From positions 62,001 to 126,000 of the forward strand of contig MSTD01000010.1 in assembly GCA_001942045.1 (NCBI GenBank): a stretch of 64,000 bases of DNA, written 5' to 3'. The stretch is from Mycolicibacterium porcinum. Lineage in GTDB: Bacteria > Actinomycetota > Actinomycetes > Mycobacteriales > Mycobacteriaceae. This document shows positions 381-12,345 of the stretch, piece after piece. The notes under the pieces are model-generated. The model worked only from the letters and a program-made list of their open reading frames with translations, was not told where the DNA came from and ran no database searches. The number at the start of each line of letters is the position of its first letter. Positions within the stretch are counted from its first letter, which is position 1. Both the position numbers and the translations under genes were made by a program.

Positions 381-977
381 GTGATCGTGCTGTTAGATCG
401 GCGGACTGCCGATGGCATTGCCGACGGGACCATCTCGCTGGTGGTCCGACGCTGGGACCGGCCCCGGGCCAAGCCCGGCGGAACCCAACGCACGCAGGCC
501 GGCACGATTCGGATCGAGTCGGTCACCGAACGTCCGGGTGACTACCGGGTGACCGCCGCGCAGGCCCGGGCTGCCGGCTATCCGGATGCGACGACGGCGC
601 AGGCTCAGCTCGATCGCAGGCCCGCCACGCACACCTACCTCATCGGGGTGTCGTACCTCGGGCCGGACGAACGGCCCGAACTCGCCGCCGACGACGCGCC
701 CACCGATGCCGACGTCGCGGCGATCTCGGCCCGGCTGGCCCGCTGGGACGCGGTCACCGAACCGTGGACGCGTCAGTACCTCGAGCTGATCGCGGCCAAC
801 GAGGCCGTCCGCGCCCCCGATCTGGCAGCGCGCCTCGGCCTTGAGGTGCCCCGGTTCAAGCGCCGCGTGCGCCAACTCAAGGGGCTGGGCCTGACCATCA
901 GCCTCGACGTCGGCTACCGGCTCGCCCCACGCGGGCGCGCCTATCTGGCCGCGAGCGGGCTCAGTCGGGATTCGTGA
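381..977 (+). CDS. ASCH-like domain protein with C-terminal winged-helix-like segment
   Basis: A 198-residue protein of unknown role. The N-terminal half (LLDRRTADGIADGTISLVVR, then GTIRIESV) resembles ASCH/PUA-like beta-barrel domains, which often bind RNA. The C-terminal third, with ARLGLEVPRFKRRVRQLKGL followed by LGYRLAPRGRAYL-like sequence, looks like a small winged helix. The reading frame opens at 285, but that start would overlap the divergent DUF3097 gene, so GTG 381 (or 387) is preferred; no strong ribosome site decides it. The last 17 bases overlap the convergent SMR gene. Domain assignment is by eye. Confidence 0.6.
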   Translation: MIVLLDRRTADGIADGTISLVVRRWDRPRAKPGGTQRTQAGTIRIESVTERPGDYRVTAAQARAAGYPDATTAQAQLDRRPATHTYLIGVSYLGPDERPELAADDAPTDADVAAISARLARWDAVTEPWTRQYLELIAANEAVRAPDLAARLGLEVPRFKRRVRQLKGLGLTISLDVGYRLAPRGRAYLAASGLSRDS

Positions 978-1281
978 ACCGGGCGAGCACGATTCCGCCG
1001 ACGATCATCGACAGGGCCAGCGCGCGCCCCGCGCTCAACGGGTCCCGATGGATCAGCACGCCGAGCGCGATCGCGCCGACCGCACCGATTCCGGTGAAGA
1101 CCGCATACGCGGTGCCGACCGGAAGTCCCCGCATCGCCAGCGACAGCAGATACACCGAGAGCGCCCCGATCGCCACACAGACCACGGTGGGCAGCGGCCG
1201 GGTGAATCCGTCGGTCGGCTTGATGCTCTGCGACCAGGCAATCTCGACCAGTCCGGCCAAACCCAGCAGTAGCCAACTCAT
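961..1281 (-). CDS. Small multidrug resistance (SMR) family transporter
   Basis: A 106-residue membrane protein with four hydrophobic helices. Glu13 in the first helix (GLAGLVEIAWSQSIK) matches the essential glutamate (Glu14) of EmrE-type proton-coupled cation exporters. The GLPVGTAYAVFTGIGAVG stretch is typical of SMR proteins. Subfamily (SugE/Gdx guanidinium exporter versus EmrE drug exporter) cannot be settled by eye. The start ATG overlaps the azoreductase stop in an ATGA, so the two are co-translated. The pair lies opposite a TetR across two operators, suggesting substrate-induced efflux. Confidence 0.88.
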   Translation of the reverse strand: MSWLLLGLAGLVEIAWSQSIKPTDGFTRPLPTVVCVAIGALSVYLLSLAMRGLPVGTAYAVFTGIGAVGAIALGVLIHRDPLSAGRALALSMIVGGIVLARFTNPD

Positions 1282-1931
1282 TTCGCGTACTCCACGGCCA
1301 GCATACGCGCCGCGGACAGCGCAGCGGACAGCGACTTGTCGTGTGCGTCCCGGAACTGAGCCAGCGCGGGATCTACCCGGGCATTGGCCATCTCGGCATT
1401 GATGAACACAGTGTCGGTGACCGCGTAGTGGCCGGCGAAGAAATCCCGCAGAAACCGTTCCTGGTAGTCGAACGCGGCCTTGGGAGCGCCGGGCGAGTAG
1501 GCCCCGCCACGGGCGGTCGTCACCACGAAGCGCCTGGGCGCCAGGGACATTCGCGGAAACGTCACCTGATCGAGCCAGGCTTTGAGTGAGGCCGGGATCG
1601 AGTAGTTGTACATCGGGGTGGCGATCAGGACGATGTCGGCCGCGCGGATCTCTTCCAGCAGCGGTTGCACGACCGCCCACGCGGCCGCGCGTCCCGGGGT
1701 ACCCGCCAACTCTTCGAGCCGGTCCAGATCGGTGCTGCCCGCGGCCAGCACCGCGTCACAGAGCTCCGTCCAGCCCTCATCGATGAACGGCACCGGATCT
1801 CTCGCCACATCGCGGTACAGGTACCGCCCGTCGGGTCGCGCGGCGCGCCAGGCCTGGGCGAACTCCGCACCGATCTGGCGACTGATGGAGCGCGTACGGG
1901 CGCTCGCGTCGACGTGAAGAAGCGTGGTCAT
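1278..1931 (-). CDS. azoR: FMN-dependent NADH-azoreductase (AzoR family)
   Basis: A 217-residue flavodoxin-like enzyme that would reduce quinones or azo compounds with NAD(P)H and FMN. The N-terminal LLHVDASARTRSISRQIG is the phosphate-binding start of this family. PMYNYSIPASLKAWLDQV (about 106-123) is the FMN-contacting signature, and TTARGG (138-143) is the second FMN loop. Length matches E. coli AzoR. It is first gene of a two-gene operon with the SMR transporter. The start ATG lies just downstream of a palindromic operator, so repression by the divergent TetR is likely. The natural inducer is unknown; a quinone or azo-like electrophile is the inference. Confidence 0.88.
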   Translation of the reverse strand: MTTLLHVDASARTRSISRQIGAEFAQAWRAARPDGRYLYRDVARDPVPFIDEGWTELCDAVLAAGSTDLDRLEELAGTPGRAAAWAVVQPLLEEIRAADIVLIATPMYNYSIPASLKAWLDQVTFPRMSLAPRRFVVTTARGGAYSPGAPKAAFDYQERFLRDFFAGHYAVTDTVFINAEMANARVDPALAQFRDAHDKSLSAALSAARMLAVEYAK

Positions 1932-1945
1932 GGCAACCTCCAAAT

Positions 1946-1967
1946 AACTGGACAATTTGTCCGGTTG
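1946..1967. promoter_or_regulatory. TetR operator copy 1 (azoR side)
   Basis: Contains the palindrome GGACAATTTGTCC at 1950-1962. The 22-bp block is an inverted copy of the block at 1979-2000, with 20 of 22 positions identical. It lies 15 bp upstream of the azoR start codon. Binding by the divergent TetR product is inferred from position and symmetry. Confidence 0.75.
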
Positions 1968-1978
1968 AGCATGAGCCA

Positions 1979-2000
1979 CAACCGGACAAATTGTCCACTT
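1979..2000. promoter_or_regulatory. TetR operator copy 2 (tetR side)
   Basis: Contains GGACAAATTGTCC at 1984-1996, the reverse complement of the core of copy 1. It lies 27 bp upstream of the tetR ATG, so it probably serves autoregulation. The centres of the two copies are about 34 bp apart, roughly three helical turns. Confidence 0.75.
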
Positions 2001-2027
2001 ATTCCGGCCATCGGTTACAGTGCAGTG

Positions 2028-2645
2028 ATGGAAATCGGCGCAGACCTCCTTGCGACCGACGAGGCCGGGTCCGAGCGGAACGGCACGGAGCGGGCGGACG
2101 CGGCGCGCAACCGCGCGAAAATCCTTGCCGCAGCGGCCAGTGTGTTCACCACGCGCGATCCCCGGACCGTCACTATGGACCACATCGCCACCGCGGCCGG
2201 GGTCGGACGCGGAACGCTCTACCGGCGCTACCCCAGCACCGCGGCCATCGCCCTGGCCCTGCTCGACGAGCACGAGCGCACCCTGCAACAGCAGCTGATC
2301 TCGGGCGACCCGCCACTGGGGCCCGGCGCGGCTCCGGCCGACCGGCTCGCCGCGTTCTACACCGCGATGGTCACCCTGCTGGACACTCACGCCGACCTGG
2401 CGCTGGGCGCCGAGGCCGGAGGCGCGCGATACACCACCGGCGCATACGGGTTCTGGGCCGCGCACGTGCGCGCGTTACTGACGGAAGCCGATGTCGCCGA
2501 ACCCGATTCACTGGTCGACGTGTTGCTGGCCCCGCTGGCAGCGGAGAATTTCGCCCACCAGCGGGCACGCGGACTCAGCGTCGATCAGATCAGCGGGGCA
2601 CTCTCCCGCCTCGCACACGCGATGCTGGCCCAGGCTAAGCGGTGA
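2028..2645 (+). CDS. TetR family repressor of the azoR-SMR operon
   Basis: A 205-residue regulator. The helix-turn-helix lies at about residues 48-70 (VTMDHIATAAGVGRGTLYRR). The divergent C-terminal ligand domain has GAEAGGARYTTG and resembles mycobacterial TetRs that guard oxidoreductase/efflux pairs. The start ATG follows the second operator; an in-frame reading from further upstream would run across both operators and was rejected. The 3' end overlaps the convergent zinc metallopeptidase gene by 11 bp. Confidence 0.88.
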   Translation: MEIGADLLATDEAGSERNGTERADAARNRAKILAAAASVFTTRDPRTVTMDHIATAAGVGRGTLYRRYPSTAAIALALLDEHERTLQQQLISGDPPLGPGAAPADRLAAFYTAMVTLLDTHADLALGAEAGGARYTTGAYGFWAAHVRALLTEADVAEPDSLVDVLLAPLAAENFAHQRARGLSVDQISGALSRLAHAMLAQAKR

Positions 2646-3660
2646 CCTCTTCGATCACGGTGTGCACGAGCCGCATCTTCTCCAGCACCGCGGGCGGCAA
2701 CACGAACGGGTACAGATCGTCGTGGCCCATCGACCGGTTCACCATGTTCAACGACCACGCCAGCGGCAGCCACATCTCGATGATGGTGTCGAAACCGCTG
2801 GGCCCCAGAATCTTCCGCTCGAACGTCGCTCCGGCCGGGGCGAACCCGAAAGCCGCCGCGGTATCGAGGGTGTCGCGGATGTGCAGATAGTGCGCGAAGG
2901 TCTCGGCCCAATCCTCTGCGGCGTGCATGGTGGCGTAGGACGAGACGAAATCGTCCTCCCAGCCCGCAGGGGGGCCGTTCTGGTAATGCCGGTCCAGCGC
3001 GGCTTTATAGTCGGCGTCCGGGTCCCCGAACAACTCACCGAACCGCACGGAGTACTCCGATGACGGAGCGACCAGGCGATAGAAGTAATAATGCCCGATC
3101 TCATGACGGAAGTGGCCCAACAAGGTTCGGTACGGCTCGGCCATCGCGATGCGCAACTGCTCGCGGTGCACATCGTCGCCCTCGGCGAGATCGAGGGTGA
3201 TGACCCCGTTGTGGTGGCCGGTGAAGACCTTCTCGGATTCACTGGACAGCAGGTCGAACGCCAGGCCGAACTCGGGGTCCTGGTCACGGCCGACGATCGG
3301 CAGTTTCAACTCGTGCAATTCGGCGATCAGCCGGCGCTTGGCCCGCTCCGCCTCGGCGAACGACGCCAGGGCCGCGGTATCAGTATCGGCAGGCCGGGTC
3401 CGGGTCAGTGCGCACGAGGCGCACAGCTGGTCCCCCTGTCCGATCCGGACGAGCCAATTGCATTCGGCCAGATGCAGATTCGCGCACAGCTGATATTGAT
3501 CCTCATCCACGGCACCGGCGTGACCGTTCTGATCGGTGTCGGTGATGACCAGCAACGCCGTGTCGTCGAGTGAGAACCCCAGTGCACTGCCGCACGACAG
3601 GCACAGGGAGTTCTCGAAGGCGAGATGCTGGCCGCAGCTCGGGCAGGTGAAATCACGCAC
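2635..3660 (-). CDS. Zinc-ribbon metallopeptidase-like protein (Rv2568c-type)
   Basis: A 341-residue protein. Its N-terminus carries a zinc ribbon (Cys6, Cys9, Cys20, Cys23) and a second Cys set (59, 67, 80, 83). The core has HEIGHYY, with His186, Glu187 and His190 forming a gluzincin-type HExxH site, and a later AEDWAETFAHYLHI helix. This matches the putative zinc-binding metallopeptidase family found beside transglutaminase and ATP-grasp genes. GTG 3660 is chosen because GAGGAGG sits just upstream and the sequence beyond it overlaps the previous gene. It overlaps the transglutaminase gene by 8 bp and is the last gene of the four-gene operon. The substrate is unknown. Confidence 0.8.
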   Translation of the reverse strand: MRDFTCPSCGQHLAFENSLCLSCGSALGFSLDDTALLVITDTDQNGHAGAVDEDQYQLCANLHLAECNWLVRIGQGDQLCASCALTRTRPADTDTAALASFAEAERAKRRLIAELHELKLPIVGRDQDPEFGLAFDLLSSESEKVFTGHHNGVITLDLAEGDDVHREQLRIAMAEPYRTLLGHFRHEIGHYYFYRLVAPSSEYSVRFGELFGDPDADYKAALDRHYQNGPPAGWEDDFVSSYATMHAAEDWAETFAHYLHIRDTLDTAAAFGFAPAGATFERKILGPSGFDTIIEMWLPLAWSLNMVNRSMGHDDLYPFVLPPAVLEKMRLVHTVIEEVTA

Positions 3661-4570
3661 GCAGGGAACCTCCTCGATCGGGCGAGTACGGCGCCACATC
3701 CACGGACACCTCGATCACGCTACTGTCCGAATCCGTGTAGATGATGCCGCGCAGCGGGGGCACATCGGCGTAGTCGCGGCCGAATCCGGCCACGATGTAG
3801 CGCTCGTCGACCATCTGGTCGTTCGTGGGATCCATTCCCAGCCAGACATTCTGTGGCGTCCACACCGACGTCCAGGCATGGGTCGCATCCACCCCGATCA
3901 TGCGCTCCTTGCCCGGCGGCGGATCGGTGGCCAGATAGCCGGAGACATAGCTGGCGGCCAGGCCGTTGGCTCGCAGGCAGGCGATCGCCAGCCGGGCGAA
4001 GTCCTGACACACCCCCTCACGAGCCGCGAGCACCTCGGCCACCTGGGTAGAAACGGTGGTCGAGCCCGACCGGTAGGTGAAGTCGGCGTAGATCCTCGAC
4101 GTCAGCTCGCGCAGCACCTCGATCAGCGGCCGTCCCGGCACGAAGCTCGGTGCCGCGTACTCCCGCACCGCGTCGGTGATCTCGGGCGGCGAGAGGTCCA
4201 GGGTGAACTCGGCGGCGAGCGCACCGTCGCCGCCGACCGGTCGGGCCAGCTCCCACGGCGCCCGGGCCGAGGCACCGGAATACCATTCGGGCGCAGGCGG
4301 ATCCACCTCCACCACCGAGTGACTGGTGATGCTCAACGTGCGGTGGCGTTCGGTGACATGGAAATACGAGCTGATGTTGCCGTAGACGTCGCGGCTGGTG
4401 GACCGATCGGCCGCGTCCGGGTCGATCACCAGCTCGTGCGACAGGCAGCGCTGCCAGTCCAGATCACGGGGCGTGAGGAACCCGCGGCCGTAGGAGCTCG
4501 TCACGTCGTCGGAGTACCGGTAGATCGTGCGATGCGTGATGTCATAGCACCGGGTGCCGGGTTCGGTCAT
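3653..4570 (-). CDS. Transglutaminase-like cysteine peptidase/transferase
   Basis: A 305-residue protein with an N-terminal bacterial transglutaminase-associated beta domain (YDITHRTIYRYSDDV) and a core with the papain-like triad: Cys188 in REGVCQDFARL, His231 in GVDATHAWTSV and Asp247 in WLGMDPTN. Such proteins (COG1305) cleave or form amide bonds, and no target is known for this branch. The ATG overlaps the stop of the ATP-grasp gene in an ATGA, implying translational coupling. It seems to be the homologue of Rv2569c. Confidence 0.88.
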   Translation of the reverse strand: MTEPGTRCYDITHRTIYRYSDDVTSSYGRGFLTPRDLDWQRCLSHELVIDPDAADRSTSRDVYGNISSYFHVTERHRTLSITSHSVVEVDPPAPEWYSGASARAPWELARPVGGDGALAAEFTLDLSPPEITDAVREYAAPSFVPGRPLIEVLRELTSRIYADFTYRSGSTTVSTQVAEVLAAREGVCQDFARLAIACLRANGLAASYVSGYLATDPPPGKERMIGVDATHAWTSVWTPQNVWLGMDPTNDQMVDERYIVAGFGRDYADVPPLRGIIYTDSDSSVIEVSVDVAPYSPDRGGSLRA

Positions 4571-7257
4571 GGCACCAGCCGCCGTTCGTCGGGGCCCCAC
4601 AGCGGCTGCATGCCACCGGGCAGCGACAGGTGCGCCGCGGTGATGACGCCGGACAGATCCCGCAGACCGGTATGCATCCCGTCCAGCAGGGCGGTCAATT
4701 CAGCCCGGGTCCCGTCCGCGGCAACCTCCTCGAGGTCGGCCGGGTCGATCCGGCGCAACCGGGTGGCCAGTTCGTCGACCAGACGTTCCGAGCGCGACGA
4801 ACCCGACGATCCGGGCAGCGCCTTGAGACCTGAGCGGAGTCGCTCCAGCTGATAGATCAACGACCTCGGGTTCTCCGCATCGAACAACACCAGTTCGGCG
4901 ATCGCCGAGATCCGGATCTGGCCCGGATTACGCCGCCGGTAGATCACCGACGATTCGCAGGCCACCAGGGTCGACTCGGTCACCGCGCGTTCGGCTTCGG
5001 CGCTGCGCATCGTCGTCAGGGTGGCCCGCAGCAGCGCGGTCAACGCCAGGCCGCGCTCGATGCGCTTGCCGAGATCCATCATCGTCCAGCCGATGTCCTG
5101 CACCATCGACTCGGCCGCGACCCCGGACAGAGCCAGCATTCCGGCCAGGGTCTGACTGTGCGCGTTGGCGAGGTAAAGGTCTGCGGCGGTGGACGATTCG
5201 GGCGGTGCGGCCGACGGCCGCAGGACGGCGCGTTCGACCCCGGCCAGCACCATCCAGGTATCGTTCGACATCTGGTCACGCACCGCGCGGGCGGCCAACG
5301 CGAGGCGCTCGACCGATTGGGCGAGCGAGCCCGGCCGGTGCCGGTCCGCCGTCGCCGACCAGAGCGTGGCCGGGGCGATCGCGACCATCTCGTGGTCGTC
5401 GTCGGTATCGCCGGTGTCGGTTCCGGTGATCGCCCCGAGCGCGGCCAGCAACACCGGAACGCACTGGCTCTCTTCCAGATCCGGGCGATAGCGGAACTCG
5501 TGGTAGCGCTCCCTGGTGACGGTGAGCAGGCGGGCCATGCTCTCGGCACGTTCGGCGTAGCGGCCCATCCAGAACAGATCGGAGAGGACACGCGGGGAAC
5601 TGACGGCTCGCGTCGGGCTGGGTATCGCGCCGGGAGCCACCAACTCCACCGACACCACCGGGGCCCGCTCGGCGGTGACCCGTTGCGGGGTACGCACCCA
5701 GACATCCTTGGCCGCAAGGGTGTTCATCCGGTAGGCGGCGTTTCCCGGCGCGACCACATAGCCCAGCCCACCGATCATCGGGGCATACCCGCCGCGCTGG
5801 GCCACGGTGAACAACCGCATGCCGACATCGCCCGCGGACAACCCTTTGGCCCGGTAATCGGTTGGTGCGGTGGAGAACTGAGGAAGCTCCTGCCCCACCC
5901 ACTCCCCCGGCTCGGCGTCGATTCGGGCGGCCAGGTCGTCGCGCTGGGCGGCCGTCAGCGCCGGGCCGACGATCGTCTCACCGCCGCTGACGGGCCGGAT
6001 CAGCAGCGAGGTCAGCTTGGTGAGCAGGTGCGAGCGCTCGATGTCGATGCCGCCCCAGTACATCGGGGCCGTCGACAGCTGCGGGGTCTCGTCCAACAGC
6101 AACTCGGCCAGTTGCGGCAGAAACCGTGCCACGCCGGGACTTTCCATGATGCCGCTGCCCAGCGTGTTGACCACGGTCACCGCGCCACGGCGCAACACCT
6201 CGACCAGGCCCACCACTCCCAGCCGGGAATCGGGACGCAGATCGAGTGGATCCACGTAGTCGGCGTCGACGCGCCGCAACACCACGTCCACCCGCTTGAG
6301 GGTGCCCAGCGAGCGCATCCAGAGCGTGCCGTCGCGCACCACCAGATCGGCACTCTCCACCAAGGGGAAGCCGAGCACCCCGGCCAGGTAGGCCTGGTCG
6401 AAGGCGGTCTCGGAATGGATCCCGGGGCTGAGCACCACCACGACGGGCTCTTGGGCTCCCTCGGGCGCCGCGTCGAGCAACGCCAGGCGCAGCGCCTGCG
6501 CCCACGGCGAGGCCGGTCGCGGGCCGACCCGCTCGTACAGGTCGGGGGCGGCATGGGCGATGACCCGGCGGTCGGCCAGCGCGTAGCCGGCACCCGAGGG
6601 TGCCTGCGTCCAGTCCGCATTCACCGTGAAGGACCCGTCCCCACCGCGGCTGACATCGCAGCCGTGCATGAACAACTGATGACGTCCCGGCACCGCGATA
6701 CCGCGCGCGGCGCGCACGTACCCGGGATGGCCGAACAGCAATCGGGCCGGCAGAACCCCGCTGGTGATCGATCGACGGGCCCCGTACAGGTCGGTGAGGA
6801 CCGCATCGAGCAGCCGAGAACGCTGCACCAAACCCGATTCCAGGGAGTCCCAGTCCTGCGCCGAGATCACCAGCGGCAGCGCATCGAGATGCCACGGCCC
6901 CGGCACGGCGGTGCCGTCGCCGTCGGTCACCACCTCCCCGTGCCGGTCCACCTGGATGTAGGTGATGCCGTCGTTGTCGACGAGACCGCGCACCACGGCG
7001 CGTAACCGGTCCAGGCCGTCGCGGCCACGTTCGCCGACGCCCTCGGCCAGCTCGCGCCAGGCAGGACGGACGTTGCCCGCGGCATCGACCAACTCGTCGT
7101 AACCGGCTCCGGCGCCGGCGTCGCGCACATCGAACAGCGCTCGCTGCGCCCGCGAAGCGCGGTAGGCGGCCAGCAGCCCGTCCACATCGACACCGGTGTT
7201 CACGGCAACACCAGTGGCATGAGCGGACTCCGGTGAGCCGTTCGCACGTAGAACCAT
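4567..7257 (-). CDS. Circularly permuted ATP-grasp protein fused to alpha-E (DUF403) domain
   Basis: An 896-residue fusion. The first about 540 residues form a circularly permuted ATP-grasp ligase (COG2308 type): MYWGGIDIERSHLL, RPVSGGETIVGP and GGLGYVVAPGNAAYRMNT are characteristic. The alpha-helical alpha-E/DUF403 domain begins near residue 560 at LFWMGRYAERAE and runs to the end. ATP-grasp enzymes join a carboxylate to an amine or thiol through an acyl phosphate. This class has been predicted from gene neighbourhoods to make short peptides or tags. It shares a TGATG junction with the upstream DUF2126 gene and an ATGA with the downstream transglutaminase. The counterpart seems to be Rv2567. 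Product and substrates are unknown. Confidence 0.88.
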   Translation of the reverse strand: MVLRANGSPESAHATGVAVNTGVDVDGLLAAYRASRAQRALFDVRDAGAGAGYDELVDAAGNVRPAWRELAEGVGERGRDGLDRLRAVVRGLVDNDGITYIQVDRHGEVVTDGDGTAVPGPWHLDALPLVISAQDWDSLESGLVQRSRLLDAVLTDLYGARRSITSGVLPARLLFGHPGYVRAARGIAVPGRHQLFMHGCDVSRGGDGSFTVNADWTQAPSGAGYALADRRVIAHAAPDLYERVGPRPASPWAQALRLALLDAAPEGAQEPVVVVLSPGIHSETAFDQAYLAGVLGFPLVESADLVVRDGTLWMRSLGTLKRVDVVLRRVDADYVDPLDLRPDSRLGVVGLVEVLRRGAVTVVNTLGSGIMESPGVARFLPQLAELLLDETPQLSTAPMYWGGIDIERSHLLTKLTSLLIRPVSGGETIVGPALTAAQRDDLAARIDAEPGEWVGQELPQFSTAPTDYRAKGLSAGDVGMRLFTVAQRGGYAPMIGGLGYVVAPGNAAYRMNTLAAKDVWVRTPQRVTAERAPVVSVELVAPGAIPSPTRAVSSPRVLSDLFWMGRYAERAESMARLLTVTRERYHEFRYRPDLEESQCVPVLLAALGAITGTDTGDTDDDHEMVAIAPATLWSATADRHRPGSLAQSVERLALAARAVRDQMSNDTWMVLAGVERAVLRPSAAPPESSTAADLYLANAHSQTLAGMLALSGVAAESMVQDIGWTMMDLGKRIERGLALTALLRATLTTMRSAEAERAVTESTLVACESSVIYRRRNPGQIRISAIAELVLFDAENPRSLIYQLERLRSGLKALPGSSGSSRSERLVDELATRLRRIDPADLEEVAADGTRAELTALLDGMHTGLRDLSGVITAAHLSLPGGMQPLWGPDERRLVP

Positions 7258-10200
7258 CAGTTAAGAACGGTACGCACCCGACGAAGATCCAGAATTCCGG
7301 GCGCGCCGAGATCAGTCGATTGCCGCGCCTGCTTCTCCCGAAGGTCCGCCATGTCGATCGTGCCGGGGGTGAACCCCGTCGCCTCGAACCGGCGGCCGCG
7401 CCGTGACTCGGCCTCGACCGCATTGACCGGCGGGGTGTCGTAGGACCGGCCGCCCGGATGGGCCACGTGGTAGGTGCAGCCGCCCTTGGACTGTCCGGTG
7501 GCGCAGTCCACCAGTTCGAACCGCAGCGGCGTGTCCACGGTGATGGTCGGGTGCAGTGCACTGGGCGGCTGCCAGGCGCGGAACCGCACACCGCCGACTT
7601 GAACATCGGGATTGTCGGTGGCCAGCAGCGGGATCGGGTAACCGTTGGCGGTCACGATGTAGCGGTGCCGGTCGGCCCCGACCAGCCGCACCTGGAACCG
7701 CTCCACCGACGAGTCCACGTAGCGGGCGGTGCCGCCACCGGTCGACTCCTCCCCCAACACGTTCCACGGTTCGATCGCACCGCGTAGCTCGATCTCCACC
7801 CCGTCATAAACCGCGGTTCCCACCCGCGGGAACCGGAACTCGGTGAAGGGATCCAGCCAGCTGGTGTCGAAGTTGATGCCGTGCGCCCGCAGGTCGGCCG
7901 CAACCTGCGCGATGTCCTGAATCACGAAGTGCGGCAACAGGTAGCGGCCATGCAGGTTCGCACCGTGACGGATCAGCGGGGCCCGCAACGGCTCCTCCCA
8001 GAATCTGGCGACCAGCGCTCGCACCAGAAGCGACTGCACCATCGCCATCTGGAAGTGCGGCGGCATCTCGAAACCCCGCAACTCCAGCAGCCCCAGGCGC
8101 CCCCGCACGCTGTCCGGGTTGTAGAGCTTGTCGATGCAGAACTCCGCGCGGTGAGTATTGCCGGTGAGGTCGGTGAGCAGATGTCTCAGGGCGCGGTCGA
8201 CCACCCACGCTTGAGCTCCGCCCCCGCTGGTGAGGCGCGCGATCTCGGCGAACGCGATCTCCAGCTCGTACAACGCTTCCGGGCGGCCCTCGTCCACCCG
8301 TGGCGCCTGCGAAGTGGGACCGACGAACCGACCGGCGAACAGATACGACAGCGAGGGGTGACGCTGCCAGTAGGTGAGCAATGACACCAACAGATCGGGC
8401 CGGCGCAGCAGCGGCGAATCGGCCGGTGTGATGCCTCCGAGGGTGATGTGGTTGCCGCCGCCGGTTCCGCCGTGCGTGCCGTCCACATCGAACGACTCGG
8501 TGGACAACCGCACCTGCCTGGCCTGCTCGTAGAGCGTCTCCAGCTGCTGCCGCTGCTCGTCGAAGCTTGCGCTCGGCGCGACGTTGACTTCGATGACGCC
8601 CGGATCCGGGGTGATCGACATCGACGCGATGCGGGCATCCGGCGGCGGCCCGTACCCCTCGATCACCACCGGGGTGTCCAGCTTGGCGGCCGCCGACTCG
8701 ATGCGGGCCACGAGGTCGACGAAATCGTCGAGTTCCTCCGTCGGCGGTAGGTAGATGTAGAGGAACCCGGAACGGATCTCGGCGACCAGCGCGGTGGTGG
8801 GCGCATCGTCGGCAGGATCGATCCCGGCCTCGTCAGGATCGGTGCGGGTCTCCGTACCCACCGACAGCGGGTCGGCGTCATAGGCCGGCCGCGGCGGCTG
8901 CCAGCTGATCGCATCGAGCGGCAGCCGCAGGCCCGCCGGTGAATCTCCCTCGGTCAGCACGATCCGCCCGCGCCGCAGCCGCCAGTCCGCACTGGCCCAG
9001 CCCGAGCCGTCCGCGCGGCGATGCAGCGGTAGCACGTAAGCGGCGGGCTGCTCGACCGAGGCATCAAGGCGGGCCAGCAGGGCGGCCCGGGCATTCGGGG
9101 TGTCGTCGGCCAGGTCGTCATCGGTGGCCACCGGCTCGCCGGCCGGCTGTCGCACGGCGGCCGCCAACCGACTCAGCGGATCCTCGAAGGCCGGACGAAC
9201 CTGGCCGGCAGGCAGCCCGAATTCGGCGGCGATCGCTGCCAGGACACGCCGACCGGCGTCGTCGGCCAAAGAGGGAACATCGCCACCCCAAGGGTCGGCG
9301 AGCAGCGCCGCGTCGGTCCACAACGGCCGGCCGTCGGTACGCCAGAACAGGCCGATCTGCCAGCGCGGCAGAGGTTCTCCCGGATACCACTTGCCCTGGC
9401 TGCGCTGGACGAGCCCGGCCGGGGCCCACACCGCCTTGAGCCGCGCCGCGAGCGCCGAGGCGCGTTCGCGCTTGTGCTCGCCGTCGGCATCGGTGGTCCA
9501 TTCCGGATCGACCTGGTTGTCGATCGAGACGAAGGTCGGCTCACCCCCGACCGTGAGCCGCACATCGCCGTCAGCCAGGCGCTGATCCACCTCGGCACCC
9601 AGCTTCGTGATCGCCGTCCACGCCTCGTCGGTGTACGGCAGCGTCACCCTCGGGTCCTCGTGGATACGGGTGACCACGTTGGAGAACTCCAGCGTGGACT
9701 CGCACGGGCCGGTGGCACCGCTGATCGGGGCGGCCGATTCCGGGTGCGGGGTCGCCGACAGCGGGATGTGCCCCTCGCCGGCGAACAGCCCCGACGTCGG
9801 GTCAAGGCCGATCCAGCCCGCACCCGGGATGTATGCCTCGGCCCAGGCGTGCAGGTCGGTGAAATCCGCGGCGGGACCCGACGGGCCGTCGAGCGCCTCC
9901 ACGTCGGAGGCCAGCTGCACCAGATAGCCCGAGACGAACCGGGCCGCGAGGCCGAGCCGGCGCAGGATCGACACCAACAGCCAGGCCGAGTCGCGGCACG
10001 AGCCGATTCCGGTGCGCAGCGTGACGTCCGGGGTCTGCACACCGGGTTCCATCCGGACCGAGTAGCCGACATCGGCGTTCACGGCCCGGTTGAGCGCCAC
10101 CAGATAATCGATCGTGCGCGTGCCGGGCGGCACGGTGAAATTGCTCACCCACGCCTTCAGGAGGTCTCCAGGCCCGGAGCCTTCACCGTCTTCGTCCACC

Positions 10201-10559
10201 GGGCGCAGATAGGGCTTGAGGTCCTCGAGCAGAGTTGTGGGGTATTCGAAGCCGACCTGCTCGGCGTAGTCCTCGATGAAGAAGTCGAACGGGTTGATCA
10301 CCTTGAGATCGGCGATGAGCCCTACGGTGATGGTCAGGGTGCGCGCCCGATCCGGAAACACCAAGCGGGCCAGGAAGTTTCCGAAGGCGTCCTGCTGCCA
10401 GTTGATGAAGTGGCCGGCCGGCTCGACGGCCAGGGAATATGCCTCGATCGGAGTGCGCGAGTGCGGGGCCGGGCGCAACCGGATGACGTGTGGATGCAGC
10501 TCCACCAACCGGTCGAAGGTGTAGCTGGTGCGGTGCTCCAGCGCCACTTTGATCCCCAT
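7257..10559 (-). CDS. Transglutaminase-like / DUF2126 putative amidoligase fusion
   Basis: About 1100 residues and the first gene of the operon. Residues 1-260 are a transglutaminase-like module with Cys188 (TGIGSCRDSAWLL), His237 (FTDLHAWAEAY) and Asp253 (WIGLDPTSG). The remainder, from about residue 330 (VRLTVGGEPTFVSID) to near the end, is DUF2126, described in Pfam as a putative amidoligase of glutamine-synthetase-like fold. ATG 10559 gives the usual family start MGIKVALEHR. An in-frame TTG at 10577 has a better purine-rich site (GGGGGAG) and cannot be excluded. With the ATP-grasp protein this gives the operon two potential amide-forming domains and two potential amide-cleaving ones. The counterpart seems to be Rv2566. 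Confidence 0.86.
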   Translation of the reverse strand: MGIKVALEHRTSYTFDRLVELHPHVIRLRPAPHSRTPIEAYSLAVEPAGHFINWQQDAFGNFLARLVFPDRARTLTITVGLIADLKVINPFDFFIEDYAEQVGFEYPTTLLEDLKPYLRPVDEDGEGSGPGDLLKAWVSNFTVPPGTRTIDYLVALNRAVNADVGYSVRMEPGVQTPDVTLRTGIGSCRDSAWLLVSILRRLGLAARFVSGYLVQLASDVEALDGPSGPAADFTDLHAWAEAYIPGAGWIGLDPTSGLFAGEGHIPLSATPHPESAAPISGATGPCESTLEFSNVVTRIHEDPRVTLPYTDEAWTAITKLGAEVDQRLADGDVRLTVGGEPTFVSIDNQVDPEWTTDADGEHKRERASALAARLKAVWAPAGLVQRSQGKWYPGEPLPRWQIGLFWRTDGRPLWTDAALLADPWGGDVPSLADDAGRRVLAAIAAEFGLPAGQVRPAFEDPLSRLAAAVRQPAGEPVATDDDLADDTPNARAALLARLDASVEQPAAYVLPLHRRADGSGWASADWRLRRGRIVLTEGDSPAGLRLPLDAISWQPPRPAYDADPLSVGTETRTDPDEAGIDPADDAPTTALVAEIRSGFLYIYLPPTEELDDFVDLVARIESAAAKLDTPVVIEGYGPPPDARIASMSITPDPGVIEVNVAPSASFDEQRQQLETLYEQARQVRLSTESFDVDGTHGGTGGGNHITLGGITPADSPLLRRPDLLVSLLTYWQRHPSLSYLFAGRFVGPTSQAPRVDEGRPEALYELEIAFAEIARLTSGGGAQAWVVDRALRHLLTDLTGNTHRAEFCIDKLYNPDSVRGRLGLLELRGFEMPPHFQMAMVQSLLVRALVARFWEEPLRAPLIRHGANLHGRYLLPHFVIQDIAQVAADLRAHGINFDTSWLDPFTEFRFPRVGTAVYDGVEIELRGAIEPWNVLGEESTGGGTARYVDSSVERFQVRLVGADRHRYIVTANGYPIPLLATDNPDVQVGGVRFRAWQPPSALHPTITVDTPLRFELVDCATGQSKGGCTYHVAHPGGRSYDTPPVNAVEAESRRGRRFEATGFTPGTIDMADLREKQARQSTDLGAPGILDLRRVRTVLN

Positions 10560-10703
10560 CTGCAAATCCCACCACAAGGCGAACTCCCCCGCACTGCGTG
10601 CGACCGGCGGCCCGCGGGGTCGCGCCGGATTCGGCCGGACTCGGTCAGCGCTGGTTGAATTCAGCGGTAATGCAACAGAGGTGAAGGGACGTGACCGCCG
10701 GGG

Positions 10704-11429
10704 ATGTGGAGCACCGTGCTGGTGATGGCCGCCGTGGCGGCAATCGACCCCCTGAGAATCGGGGTGGTTGCCTTCATGCTGTCGCGGTCACGGCCGGTGC
10801 GGTTGCTGCTCCCGTTCTTTCTGTTCGCCTTCACCGCCAACGTCGCGGTGGGTGCGGCGGTCGTGTTCGTGTTCAAGAACGCCACCAGTGACGGCGGAAG
10901 CACGATGTCGCCCGGTCTGGAGATCGGTATCGGCGCGGTGGCGTTGGTGATCGCCGCCCTGTCTGCGACCGGACAGCTCGAGCGCCTGGTCAACCGGGTG
11001 CGGTCCCGCCGGGCCGTGCCGGCCGCGGTGGGCGACGGCATCGACGCACCCGCCGAGGACGCGGTGCCGGGGCTGTCGAAACTGCCGGCCGGAATGCAGT
11101 CCGCGCTACGGGGCGAGGCACCGTGGGCAGCGGCGCTGCTGGGTCTGATCAACGGCTTTCCCACGCCCTACTACCTGGCGGCGATGGCAGCGGCGCTCAC
11201 CTCGGGCGCTGCGCTGGCCGAGCAGATGGCCGCGCTGGTCGCGTTCAACCTCGTGGGTTTCCTGGCGGCGCTGATCCCGATCATCAGCTTCTGGGTTGCG
11301 CCGGAGGCCACCCGGTCGGGCGTGGAACGGTTGTATGCCTGGATGGGGCGCCACCATCGGCTGGTGGTGGCCGTGATCGCCGGCGCGGTCGGAGTGTTCT
11401 TCCTGGCCTCGGGCATCAGCCACTTGTGA
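10704..11429 (+). CDS. GAP/SfLAP family membrane protein
   Basis: A 241-residue integral membrane protein with about six hydrophobic segments and a hydrophilic loop around residues 98-140. The N-terminal VLVMAAVAAIDPLRIGVVAF and the LLGLINGFPTPYYLAAMA segment match the GAP (SfLAP) family. Its mycobacterial members (Sap and Gap) take part in export of sulfolipid-1 and glycopeptidolipids. The cargo here is unknown. The gene is divergent from the amidoligase operon across 144 bp and overlaps the convergent DUF389 gene by 14 bp. The ATG 10704 follows GCCGGGG. Confidence 0.75.
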   Translation: MWSTVLVMAAVAAIDPLRIGVVAFMLSRSRPVRLLLPFFLFAFTANVAVGAAVVFVFKNATSDGGSTMSPGLEIGIGAVALVIAALSATGQLERLVNRVRSRRAVPAAVGDGIDAPAEDAVPGLSKLPAGMQSALRGEAPWAAALLGLINGFPTPYYLAAMAAALTSGAALAEQMAALVAFNLVGFLAALIPIISFWVAPEATRSGVERLYAWMGRHHRLVVAVIAGAVGVFFLASGISHL

Positions 11430-12345
11430 CGGCGCGGCGTACGTTCGTGCGACGGTAGACCGCGAGCGTCAGCACCCCGGCCAGGGTGATACCCAGCAGG
11501 TTGACCAGCAGCTGCAGCACGGAATTGGCCGCGACGGCCCAATCGCCCACCGTGGCGGCGACCACCGCGAATCCGGCGGCGGGGACGGTCGTCACCGAGA
11601 TGAAGACACCCACGAGCGCCGCCGATTTCGACGACACAAGCGACAGCATCCCGGCGGCGCCGGCCAGCAGTGCGACGACGAACGAGAACGGTCCCACCTG
11701 GTAGATGAAGTCGACTTCGGTGAGTTCACTGAATGTGGTCAGCTGCACCCAGCCCAGCGCCTCAAAACCCAGCGTCGCGACCGCGGTGACGACCATGGCC
11801 AGCGGGAAACCAACCAGCAGAGCTGCGCCGGCCCGCCGGGCCAGTGACATTCGACGTTGGACGAGCGCTACGGCAAGCGCCGCCAGCGGGCCGAATTCCG
11901 GAGCCACCACCATCGCGCCGACAACGGTGATGGCCGAATCGGTCACCACACCGATGGCCGCGAGCAGGCAGGCGATGCACAAGAACATCAGGTATGTGAC
12001 GCTGAGGCTCGACTCTTCTCGGGTCCGCGAAACCAGCTCATCCCAGATCACCGCATCGGCGCCGTCACCTCCGGCGACATCCTCCGCGTGGTAGGCCGCG
12101 CTCGACAGCACCGTGTCGAGCGGTTCGAGGGTGATCGCGCCGAAGTGCTGCACATCAAGGGATTTCAGCCGCTGAACGACGTCGTCGGCCGCCTCCCTGG
12201 CGACATCGGCGGTGATCTGGTCGCCGGTGGGATCGACCGCGGCCCCGGGCAGCAGTACGACGTGGGCGACACCGGGTTGTGCCTCTAAGACACGGAGGAT
12301 CGGATCACGCAGATCGGCCGGCGCAATGATGCGTAAATGGAGCAC
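11416..12345 (-). CDS. DUF389 family membrane protein
   Basis: A 309-residue protein. The N-terminal about 95 residues form a soluble ACT-like fold (LRIIAPADLRDPILRVL, GVAHVVLLPGAA), followed by six or so membrane helices from about residue 115. DSAITVVGAMVVAPEFGPL is the hallmark of DUF389, a family without an established function. The start is GTG, and the sequence ahead of it does not extend the family similarity. It is the distal gene behind the SUKH/DUF4253 gene, with 18 bp between them, so it may be co-transcribed with the HxlR regulator. Confidence 0.82.
   Translation of the reverse strand: MLHLRIIAPADLRDPILRVLEAQPGVAHVVLLPGAAVDPTGDQITADVAREAADDVVQRLKSLDVQHFGAITLEPLDTVLSSAAYHAEDVAGGDGADAVIWDELVSRTREESSLSVTYLMFLCIACLLAAIGVVTDSAITVVGAMVVAPEFGPLAALAVALVQRRMSLARRAGAALLVGFPLAMVVTAVATLGFEALGWVQLTTFSELTEVDFIYQVGPFSFVVALLAGAAGMLSLVSSKSAALVGVFISVTTVPAAGFAVVAATVGDWAVAANSVLQLLVNLLGITLAGVLTLAVYRRTNVRRAVTSG

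What the first reader, a model, noticed from the sequence alone, without database searches (positions are those of the whole stretch)
2635..10559. Four-gene amidoligase/transglutaminase/ATP-grasp operon: a likely undescribed peptide-synthesis system
The four genes overlap or touch at every junction (TGATG, ATGA, 8 bp), so their products are made together. They combine two potential amide-bond makers (DUF2126 amidoligase, circularly permuted ATP-grasp), two Cys-His-Asp transglutaminase domains, an alpha-E helical domain and a zinc-ribbon HExxH peptidase. Comparative genomics has predicted that such sets make a short peptide or attach a tag to proteins. To my knowledge no substrate or product has been shown. 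All catalytic residues I can assign are intact, so the system should be active.
Basis: partly seen in the sequence, partly recalled or inferred. Interest (0 to 1): 0.78.

Follow-up and report, generated by a model that had tools for sequence, protein, structure and literature searches.

The report
Amide-bond operon with a degenerate ligase
A real and widely conserved mycobacterial gene set, predicted since 2008-2009 to build or trim amide-linked peptides, but one of its two supposed bond-making enzymes has lost residues needed to use ATP and its intact relative is encoded elsewhere in related genomes.

Summary
The window is from a Mycolicibacterium near M. porcinum/M. septicum. It is not undescribed: a 2008 paper names the M. 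tuberculosis counterpart, and the Anbu literature credits the tagging idea to a 2009 paper that I could not read.

One claim fails. The ATP-grasp half of gene B lacks the Glu/Asn pair (Ala214, Trp216) and the Lys/Gly loop. Across phyla 0 of 82 fused ATP-grasp/alpha-E proteins keep Lys+Glu+Asn+Gly-Gly, against 25 of 26 stand-alone relatives; 7 of 7 more fused proteins agree. The two types split exactly in a tree (support 1.0), yet the fused domain is under purifying selection: an ancient, maintained pseudo-ligase.

The DUF2126 ligase, both transglutaminase domains and the zincin look intact. Every sampled DUF2126 genome also has a stand-alone ATP-grasp (6 of 6; 46 of 46), so the operon probably works with a second locus. 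In two Proteobacteria related genes respond to nitrogen limitation. Substrate and product remain unknown.

The parts
7257..10559 (-). gene A, 1100 aa: N-terminal transglutaminase-like unit + DUF2126 ligase
   Evidence: ORF; Pfam; TTG start at 10577 also possible
9690..10559 (-). gene A residues 1-290: transglutaminase-like domain, Cys188-His237-Asp253
7575..9647 (-). gene A residues 305-995: glutamine-synthetase-like (DUF2126) ligase fold
4567..7257 (-). gene B, 896 aa: degenerate circularly permuted ATP-grasp fused to alpha-E
   Evidence: ORF; Pfam; model pLDDT 87
5689..6900 (-). gene B residues 120-523: ATP-grasp domain of glutathione-synthetase type
6610..6618 (-). gene B residues 214-216 (Ala-Asp-Trp) where intact relatives have Glu-Asp-Asn (metal ligands by motif)
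   Evidence: alignment of 26 stand-alone and 82 fused proteins; residues read back
5971..5997 (-). gene B residues 421-429: Arg and shortened loop where intact relatives have Lys and a Gly-Gly-Tyr-Gly loop
4630..5595 (-). gene B residues 555-876: alpha-E helical domain
   Evidence: Pfam PF04168 229 bits; no clear solved-structure match
3653..4570 (-). gene C: stand-alone transglutaminase-like protein, Cys188-His231-Asp247
   Evidence: C and H 78 of 78, D 74 of 78 relatives
2635..3660 (-). gene D: zinc ribbon (8 Cys) + Peptidase_Mx zincin
   Evidence: 8 Cys, H186, E187, H190, E249, E253, H257 in 14 of 14 relatives
3091..3105 (-). HExxH zinc motif of gene D (residues 186-190, HEIGH)

Best explanation
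The operon encodes one half of a two-locus system for making and turning over an amide-linked (gamma-glutamyl or isopeptide) conjugate. In this operon the glutamine-synthetase-like DUF2126 domain of gene A is the working ATP-dependent ligase (inferred from fold and conserved residues). Its own transglutaminase domain and gene C are Cys-His-Asp enzymes that hydrolyse or transfer amide bonds (triads shown, reaction inferred). Gene D is a zincin that probably trims or removes the conjugate (motif shown, role inferred). Gene B is an ancient pseudo-ATP-grasp: it keeps the glutathione-synthetase-like fold but lacks the metal-ligand pair and phosphate loop, so with its alpha-E domain it most likely binds and presents the substrate or regulates the ligases rather than spending ATP. 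The intact ATP-grasp comes from an unlinked ATP-grasp/alpha-E/transglutaminase trio (shown in three other mycobacteria and a Nocardia; the window's own genome is not held). In two Proteobacteria related genes respond to nitrogen limitation (published), so I favour a role in nitrogen economy; in mycobacteria that is inference. My estimates by step: pseudo-ligase 0.85; need for the second locus 0.75; gene A as an active ligase 0.7; nitrogen role in mycobacteria 0.35.
Against: No substrate, product or complex is known. The residue roles (Glu/Asn as metal ligands, Lys/Gly as phosphate loop) rest on motif and fold likeness to glutathione synthetases and on recall; my profile comparison with glutathionylspermidine synthetases found nothing usable, nor did that of DUF2126 with glutamine synthetase. 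Co-occurrence does not prove joint function, and most sampled mycobacterial-group genomes have both loci anyway (46 of 50, 47 with a contig piece). One proteobacterial genome, G277, showed the fused protein without a stand-alone one. Three genomes have DUF2126 without the fused protein (G164, G192, G204; in G177 and G225 the DUF2126 hit sits at a contig end), so gene B's part is not universal. Against Nocardia (L015) the fused domain's dN/dS is higher, 0.36. Nitrogen: the PP_2685 (Anbu) promoter was nitrogen-agnostic in the same paper's reporter test, and PMC5666114 cites work in which these genes did not change under various conditions and were dispensable (passage). The Yersinia ATP-grasp assay saw phosphate release that neither glutamine nor glutamate stimulated, and no complex of the operon proteins was found (PMC6376114). 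No nitrogen-regulator site was tested in the window.
Confidence: 0.5

Rival explanations
1. Amine or amide scavenging: the DUF2126 ligase gamma-glutamylates an amine (as gamma-glutamylmethylamide or gamma-glutamylputrescine synthetases do) and the transglutaminase/zincin units release its nitrogen under starvation.
Against: GmaS does not stand out from ordinary glutamine synthetases (within 2 Z units of the best). No dehydrogenase or deaminase domain in the four genes. Only one locus showed nitrate genes among the four whose neighbours were searched (L031, L032, L069, L071).
Confidence: 0.25
2. Biosynthesis of a small peptide metabolite, with genes A and B as two peptide ligases in sequence.
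For: Two ligase folds in one operon; a peptide-synthesis reading is in the literature (passages).
Against: Gene B lacks the ATP-grasp residue set, as do 82 of 82 sampled relatives. Distribution is broad (DUF2126 in 46 of 150 Pseudomonadota). No export or carrier domain in the four genes.
Confidence: 0.15
3. Gene B is an active but altered ATP-grasp in which the conserved Arg (73 of 82) and other residues replace the usual metal ligands.
For: The new motif (D-R-T-Q-A-P-S-G) is itself conserved, Lys is kept in 53 of 82, and the domain is under purifying selection.
Against: The full residue set is gone in all 82; the window also lacks the Lys (Arg421). A stand-alone paralogue is present in 44 of 45 sampled Pseudomonadota with the fused form.
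Confidence: 0.15
4. The genes are mainly extracellular virulence proteases: the M. tuberculosis counterpart of gene C was reported as a cell-wall serine protease.
For: PMC11081392 (abstract, section 6 and passages): recombinant protein degraded casein and E-cadherin; AEBSF and PMSF inhibited, E-64 and NEM did not; located on the cell wall; deletion strains were made and infection effects reported.
Against: Gene C is a Cys-His-Asp protein with Cys188 in 78 of 78 relatives, among them Azospirillum and other bacteria that are not pathogens of animals; the paper's main text holds the terms 'active site', 'catalytic', 'operon' and 'transglutaminase' 0 times and 'mutant protein' 0 times, so I saw no active-site mutant. 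A contaminating protease is a possible cause (inference).
Confidence: 0.05

Closest known systems
Predicted circularly permuted ATP-grasp / alpha-E / transglutaminase / glutamine-synthetase-like tagging system (Iyer 2009, abstract recalled; Rv2566 named in PMC2588565)
   Same: Same domains and gene neighbourhood; Rv2566-Rv2569c are the M. tuberculosis counterparts (assignment and order recalled; a convergent arrangement is seen in L012-L014)
   Different: The ATP-grasp in this operon lacks catalytic residues; the peptidase beside it is a zincin; no Anbu in the window
Anbu operon (ATP-grasp, alpha-E, transglutaminase, Anbu)
   Same: Shares ATP-grasp, alpha-E and transglutaminase families; nitrogen-limitation response reported in Pseudomonas
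   Different: Anbu operon carries a separate ATP-grasp (the Yersinia one releases phosphate from ATP) and separate alpha-E; here DUF2126, fused pseudo-ATP-grasp and zincin. Mixed forms exist: DUF2126 beside Anbu and an intact trio in G164 and G204
Eukaryotic-type glutathione synthetase / glutathionylspermidine synthetase (2hgs, 2io7) and 3n6x
   Different: Gene B lacks the Glu/Asn and Lys/Gly-loop residues
Glutamine synthetase and GmaS
   Different: About 8-16% identity, fused to a transglutaminase domain; substrates unknown

Membership tests
DUF2126/CP-ATP-grasp/alpha-E/transglutaminase predicted peptide system | DUF2126, CP_ATPgrasp, Alpha-E and Transglut_core domains in one gene cluster | tested here: met
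   Pfam cut-offs exceeded, contiguous genes
DUF2126/CP-ATP-grasp/alpha-E/transglutaminase predicted peptide system | a linked peptidase | tested here: met
   Peptidase_Mx zincin gene D; within 4 kb of DUF2126 in 6 of 6 actinobacterial DUF2126 genomes. Peptidase activity itself not tested
Anbu operon | Anbu (proteasome-like) gene in the cluster | tested here: not met
   profile of four Anbu-like ORFs (all match PF00227) finds none in the window; rest of the genome not held
functional ATP-grasp ligase (gene B) | ATP-grasp fold | tested here: met
functional ATP-grasp ligase (gene B) | acidic/amide metal ligands (Glu..Asn) and Lys + Gly loop over ATP | tested here: not met
   Ala214, Trp216, Arg421, shortened loop; 0 of 82 fused proteins keep the set. 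Roles of the residues recalled from relatives
glutamine-synthetase-like ligase (gene A) | glutamine synthetase fold | tested here: met
glutamine-synthetase-like ligase (gene A) | metal-binding Glu/His residues of the family | tested here: inconclusive
   E340, E657, H704, E826, R828 conserved in all relatives covering them, but profile comparison failed; equivalence is motif-level recall
transglutaminase-like cysteine enzymes (genes A, C) | Cys-His-Asp triad | tested here: met
   gene A 61 of 61; gene C Cys and His 78 of 78, Asp 74 of 78
HExxH metallopeptidase (gene D) | HExxH plus third ligand | tested here: met
   H186-E187-H190 and E249/E253 in 14 of 14; which Glu is the third ligand is inference
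pupylation-like protein tagging | small tag-protein gene beside the ligase | tested here: inconclusive
   genes overlap, so no room for a tag gene inside the operon; small ORFs in the upstream gap were not checked for conservation

The most novel reading that the evidence does not exclude
Mycobacteria run a second, Pup-independent conjugation cycle for nitrogen starvation: an intact ATP-grasp from one locus and the glutamine-synthetase-like DUF2126 ligase from this one build an isopeptide or gamma-glutamyl conjugate, a dedicated pseudo-ATP-grasp/alpha-E protein (an ancient catalytically dead paralogue, kept across phyla) holds the substrate, and the zincin and transglutaminases take the conjugate apart.
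Probability: 0.2. Interest if true: 0.85.

Novelty: new member of a known kind. Interest (0 to 1): 0.48.

Why it matters
The fused protein is in 47 of 50 sampled genomes of the mycobacterial group and DUF2126 in 46 of 150 sampled Proteobacteria, yet I found no known product. If its ATP-grasp is a conserved pseudo-ligase that always travels with an intact paralogue, experimenters know which protein to assay and which two loci to delete together, and the glutathione synthetase superfamily gains a cross-phylum enzyme/pseudo-enzyme pair. It also puts a question mark on the 'serine protease' label given to one counterpart.

Tried and rejected
Tried without result: Rfam (gathering thresholds) and tRNA scans of the window found nothing. 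Profile comparison of DUF2126 with glutamine synthetase and of the stand-alone ATP-grasp with glutathionylspermidine synthetase gave no usable alignment; my pattern picked only 7 of 20 and 2 of 4 fetched loci for it. No promoter-like site and no terminator excess. The alpha-E domain has no clear match among solved structures (helical-bundle scores under 13; inconclusive). Paper searches for catalytic residues of glutathione synthetase and for GlnR control of these genes found nothing useful; no held paper had two of Rv2409c-Rv2411c.

Rejected: a nitrate-transport link as a general rule. Twelve loci seemed to share an ABC transporter, but of the four loci whose neighbours I identified (10 ORFs) only L071 was nitrate-specific; the rest were generic ABC genes or unmatched. 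Zincin and Anbu as mutually exclusive alternatives: L112 has both. The idea that DUF2126 always needs the fused protein: 5 of 46 genomes showed none, two of them with DUF2126 at a contig end. A suspected fused protein without DUF2126 or a stand-alone partner (G093, long frame) proved to be an intact type without an alpha-E hit.

Full report
What is there. The window carries four minus-strand genes that overlap at each junction: A 7257-10559, B 4567-7257, C 3653-4570, D 2635-3660, with TGATG, ATGA and GTGCGTGA overlaps. Gene D is 97% identical to a Mycolicibacterium porcinum protein and gene A 92-93% to M. septicum ones, so the source is probably a fast-growing Mycolicibacterium; its genome is not held.

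Is it known? Yes, as a prediction. PMC2588565 (2008; passage) describes the M. tuberculosis Rv2566 family as a transglutaminase-like domain fused to a carboxylate-amine ligase. The Anbu papers PMC6376114 and PMC5666114 (passages; one section of the first) describe the related ATP-grasp/alpha-E/transglutaminase/Anbu operon and credit the peptide-synthesis or tagging idea to Iyer 2009, which is not held (I recall its abstract). The searches that bear on whether a substrate is in print were made, all limited to the open library; their listings, and the passages that I opened, showed none. Two published activities touch the set: phosphate release from ATP by the stand-alone Yersinia ATP-grasp, and a reported serine-protease activity of Rv2569c, the counterpart of gene C.

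Relatives. Eighty loci from named genomes and eight plasmid loci were mapped with profiles made here. Of the 80 genome loci, 60 hold a DUF2126 gene, a fused ATP-grasp/alpha-E gene and a transglutaminase gene together (recount); contig ends cut some of the others. They include Actinomycetota, Proteobacteria, Acidobacteria, Verrucomicrobia and Planctomycetes by record title. In 25 of the 80 a separate ATP-grasp gene lies in the same stretch, in 23 of them with a separate alpha-E gene. Gene D relatives lie in 8 of the 80: mycobacteria, an actinomycete MAG, Nocardia and Paraburkholderia. Anbu-like genes lie in 4 (PF00227). In three mycobacterial loci (L012-L014) genes C and D are turned round relative to A and B.

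Which genes go together. In 119 Actinomycetota genomes DUF2126 occurs in 6. All 6 have the zincin within 4 kb of it and a stand-alone ATP-grasp; 1 of the other 113 has the zincin and 11 have the stand-alone enzyme. In 150 Pseudomonadota DUF2126 occurs in 46: all 46 have the stand-alone ATP-grasp (36 of the other 104 do), 41 have the fused protein (4 of the other 104), and 15 have the zincin against 7 of 104 (Fisher p 2e-16, 1e-26 and 1e-4). The zincin is within 4 kb in 5 of those 15; in 8 the two lie on different contigs and cannot be judged. In two genomes without the fused protein (G164, G204) DUF2126 lies beside an Anbu gene and an intact trio, and G192 has the intact trio on another contig: natural versions in which the stand-alone ATP-grasp is the only one. 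In 50 genomes of the mycobacterial group 48 have the stand-alone type (one as a contig piece) and 47 the fused type; two lack both; 45 of 50 have the zincin. In the mycobacterium G001 the stand-alone gene is part of an ATP-grasp/alpha-E/transglutaminase trio about 1.5 million bases from the fused gene. The window itself has no second ATP-grasp.

When it is used. PMC5491218 (passages) lists a four-gene Burkholderia cenocepacia cluster (separate ATP-grasp, alpha-E, transglutaminase, and a large transglutaminase protein that I take to be DUF2126) at -6.0 to -9.4 in an ntrC mutant. PMC8050072 (passages) lists P. putida PP_2685 (proteasome-like, Anbu) and PP_2688 (permuted ATP-grasp) among genes raised on nitrate and reports 3.7-fold induction of the PP_2688 promoter on nitrogen depletion; the PP_2685 promoter was nitrogen-agnostic there. 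PMC5666114 (passage) cites nitrogen-limited induction in P. putida but also no change under various other conditions. So nitrogen limitation is the best published trigger in Proteobacteria. Nothing here tests it in mycobacteria.

Verdict. The operon is real and conserved but belongs to a known, uncharacterised kind. The useful new point is negative and testable: the operon's ATP-grasp is probably dead, as it is in its relatives across the phyla sampled here, and the live copy is elsewhere. I found no mention of this in the listings and passages, but the 2009 paper was out of reach and may contain it.

Noticed in passing
window 10704-11429 (+): Divergent neighbour is a Sap/SfLAP-family membrane protein (PF11139, 179 bits), followed by a DUF389 protein (11416-12345 -).
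   Followed up: no
window 961-2645: Left of the operon: a TetR-type regulator (PF00440) converging on gene D with an 11-base overlap, and on the other strand ORFs that look like a small multidrug-resistance-type membrane protein and an azoreductase-like flavoprotein (names from recall, not searched).
   Followed up: no
L012, L013, L014: In M. szulgai, M. colombiense and M. rhizamassiliense genes C and D are inverted relative to A and B, a convergent arrangement, while the window and L015 (Nocardia) keep one co-directional operon; L009 and L010 show the same order as far as their contigs reach.
   Followed up: partly
genomes G291 and G296: Two mycobacterial-group genomes lack the stand-alone ATP-grasp, the fused one and the zincin, as if the whole system had been lost together.
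   Followed up: no
L144 (G164) and L146-L147 (G204): DUF2126 beside Anbu and an intact ATP-grasp/alpha-E/transglutaminase trio, no fused pseudo-ATP-grasp; G204 has a second intact trio. Natural minimal versions for testing what gene B adds.
   Followed up: partly
L112 5394-9771: Zincin, Anbu, stand-alone ATP-grasp and alpha-E genes lie together in one proteobacterial genome (G230).
   Followed up: partly
L071 9926-15469: DUF2126 cluster of a Beijerinckiaceae MAG is followed by nitrate ABC transporter genes and nirB.
   Followed up: partly
genomes G103, G313, G317, G319: A second, more distant Peptidase_Mx copy (about 275-286 bits) lies away from the operon in these mycobacterial-group genomes.
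   Followed up: no
genome G181, C41: The DUF2126 gene of one proteobacterial genome shows a TAG stop inside the matched stretch, an apparent broken copy or sequencing error; left as it is.
   Followed up: no
L139-L142 (G093, G127, G095, G106): Actinobacterial permuted ATP-grasps in long frames (724-958 aa), with no or only a trace alpha-E match, that keep the intact motif: a third subtype not studied here.
   Followed up: partly
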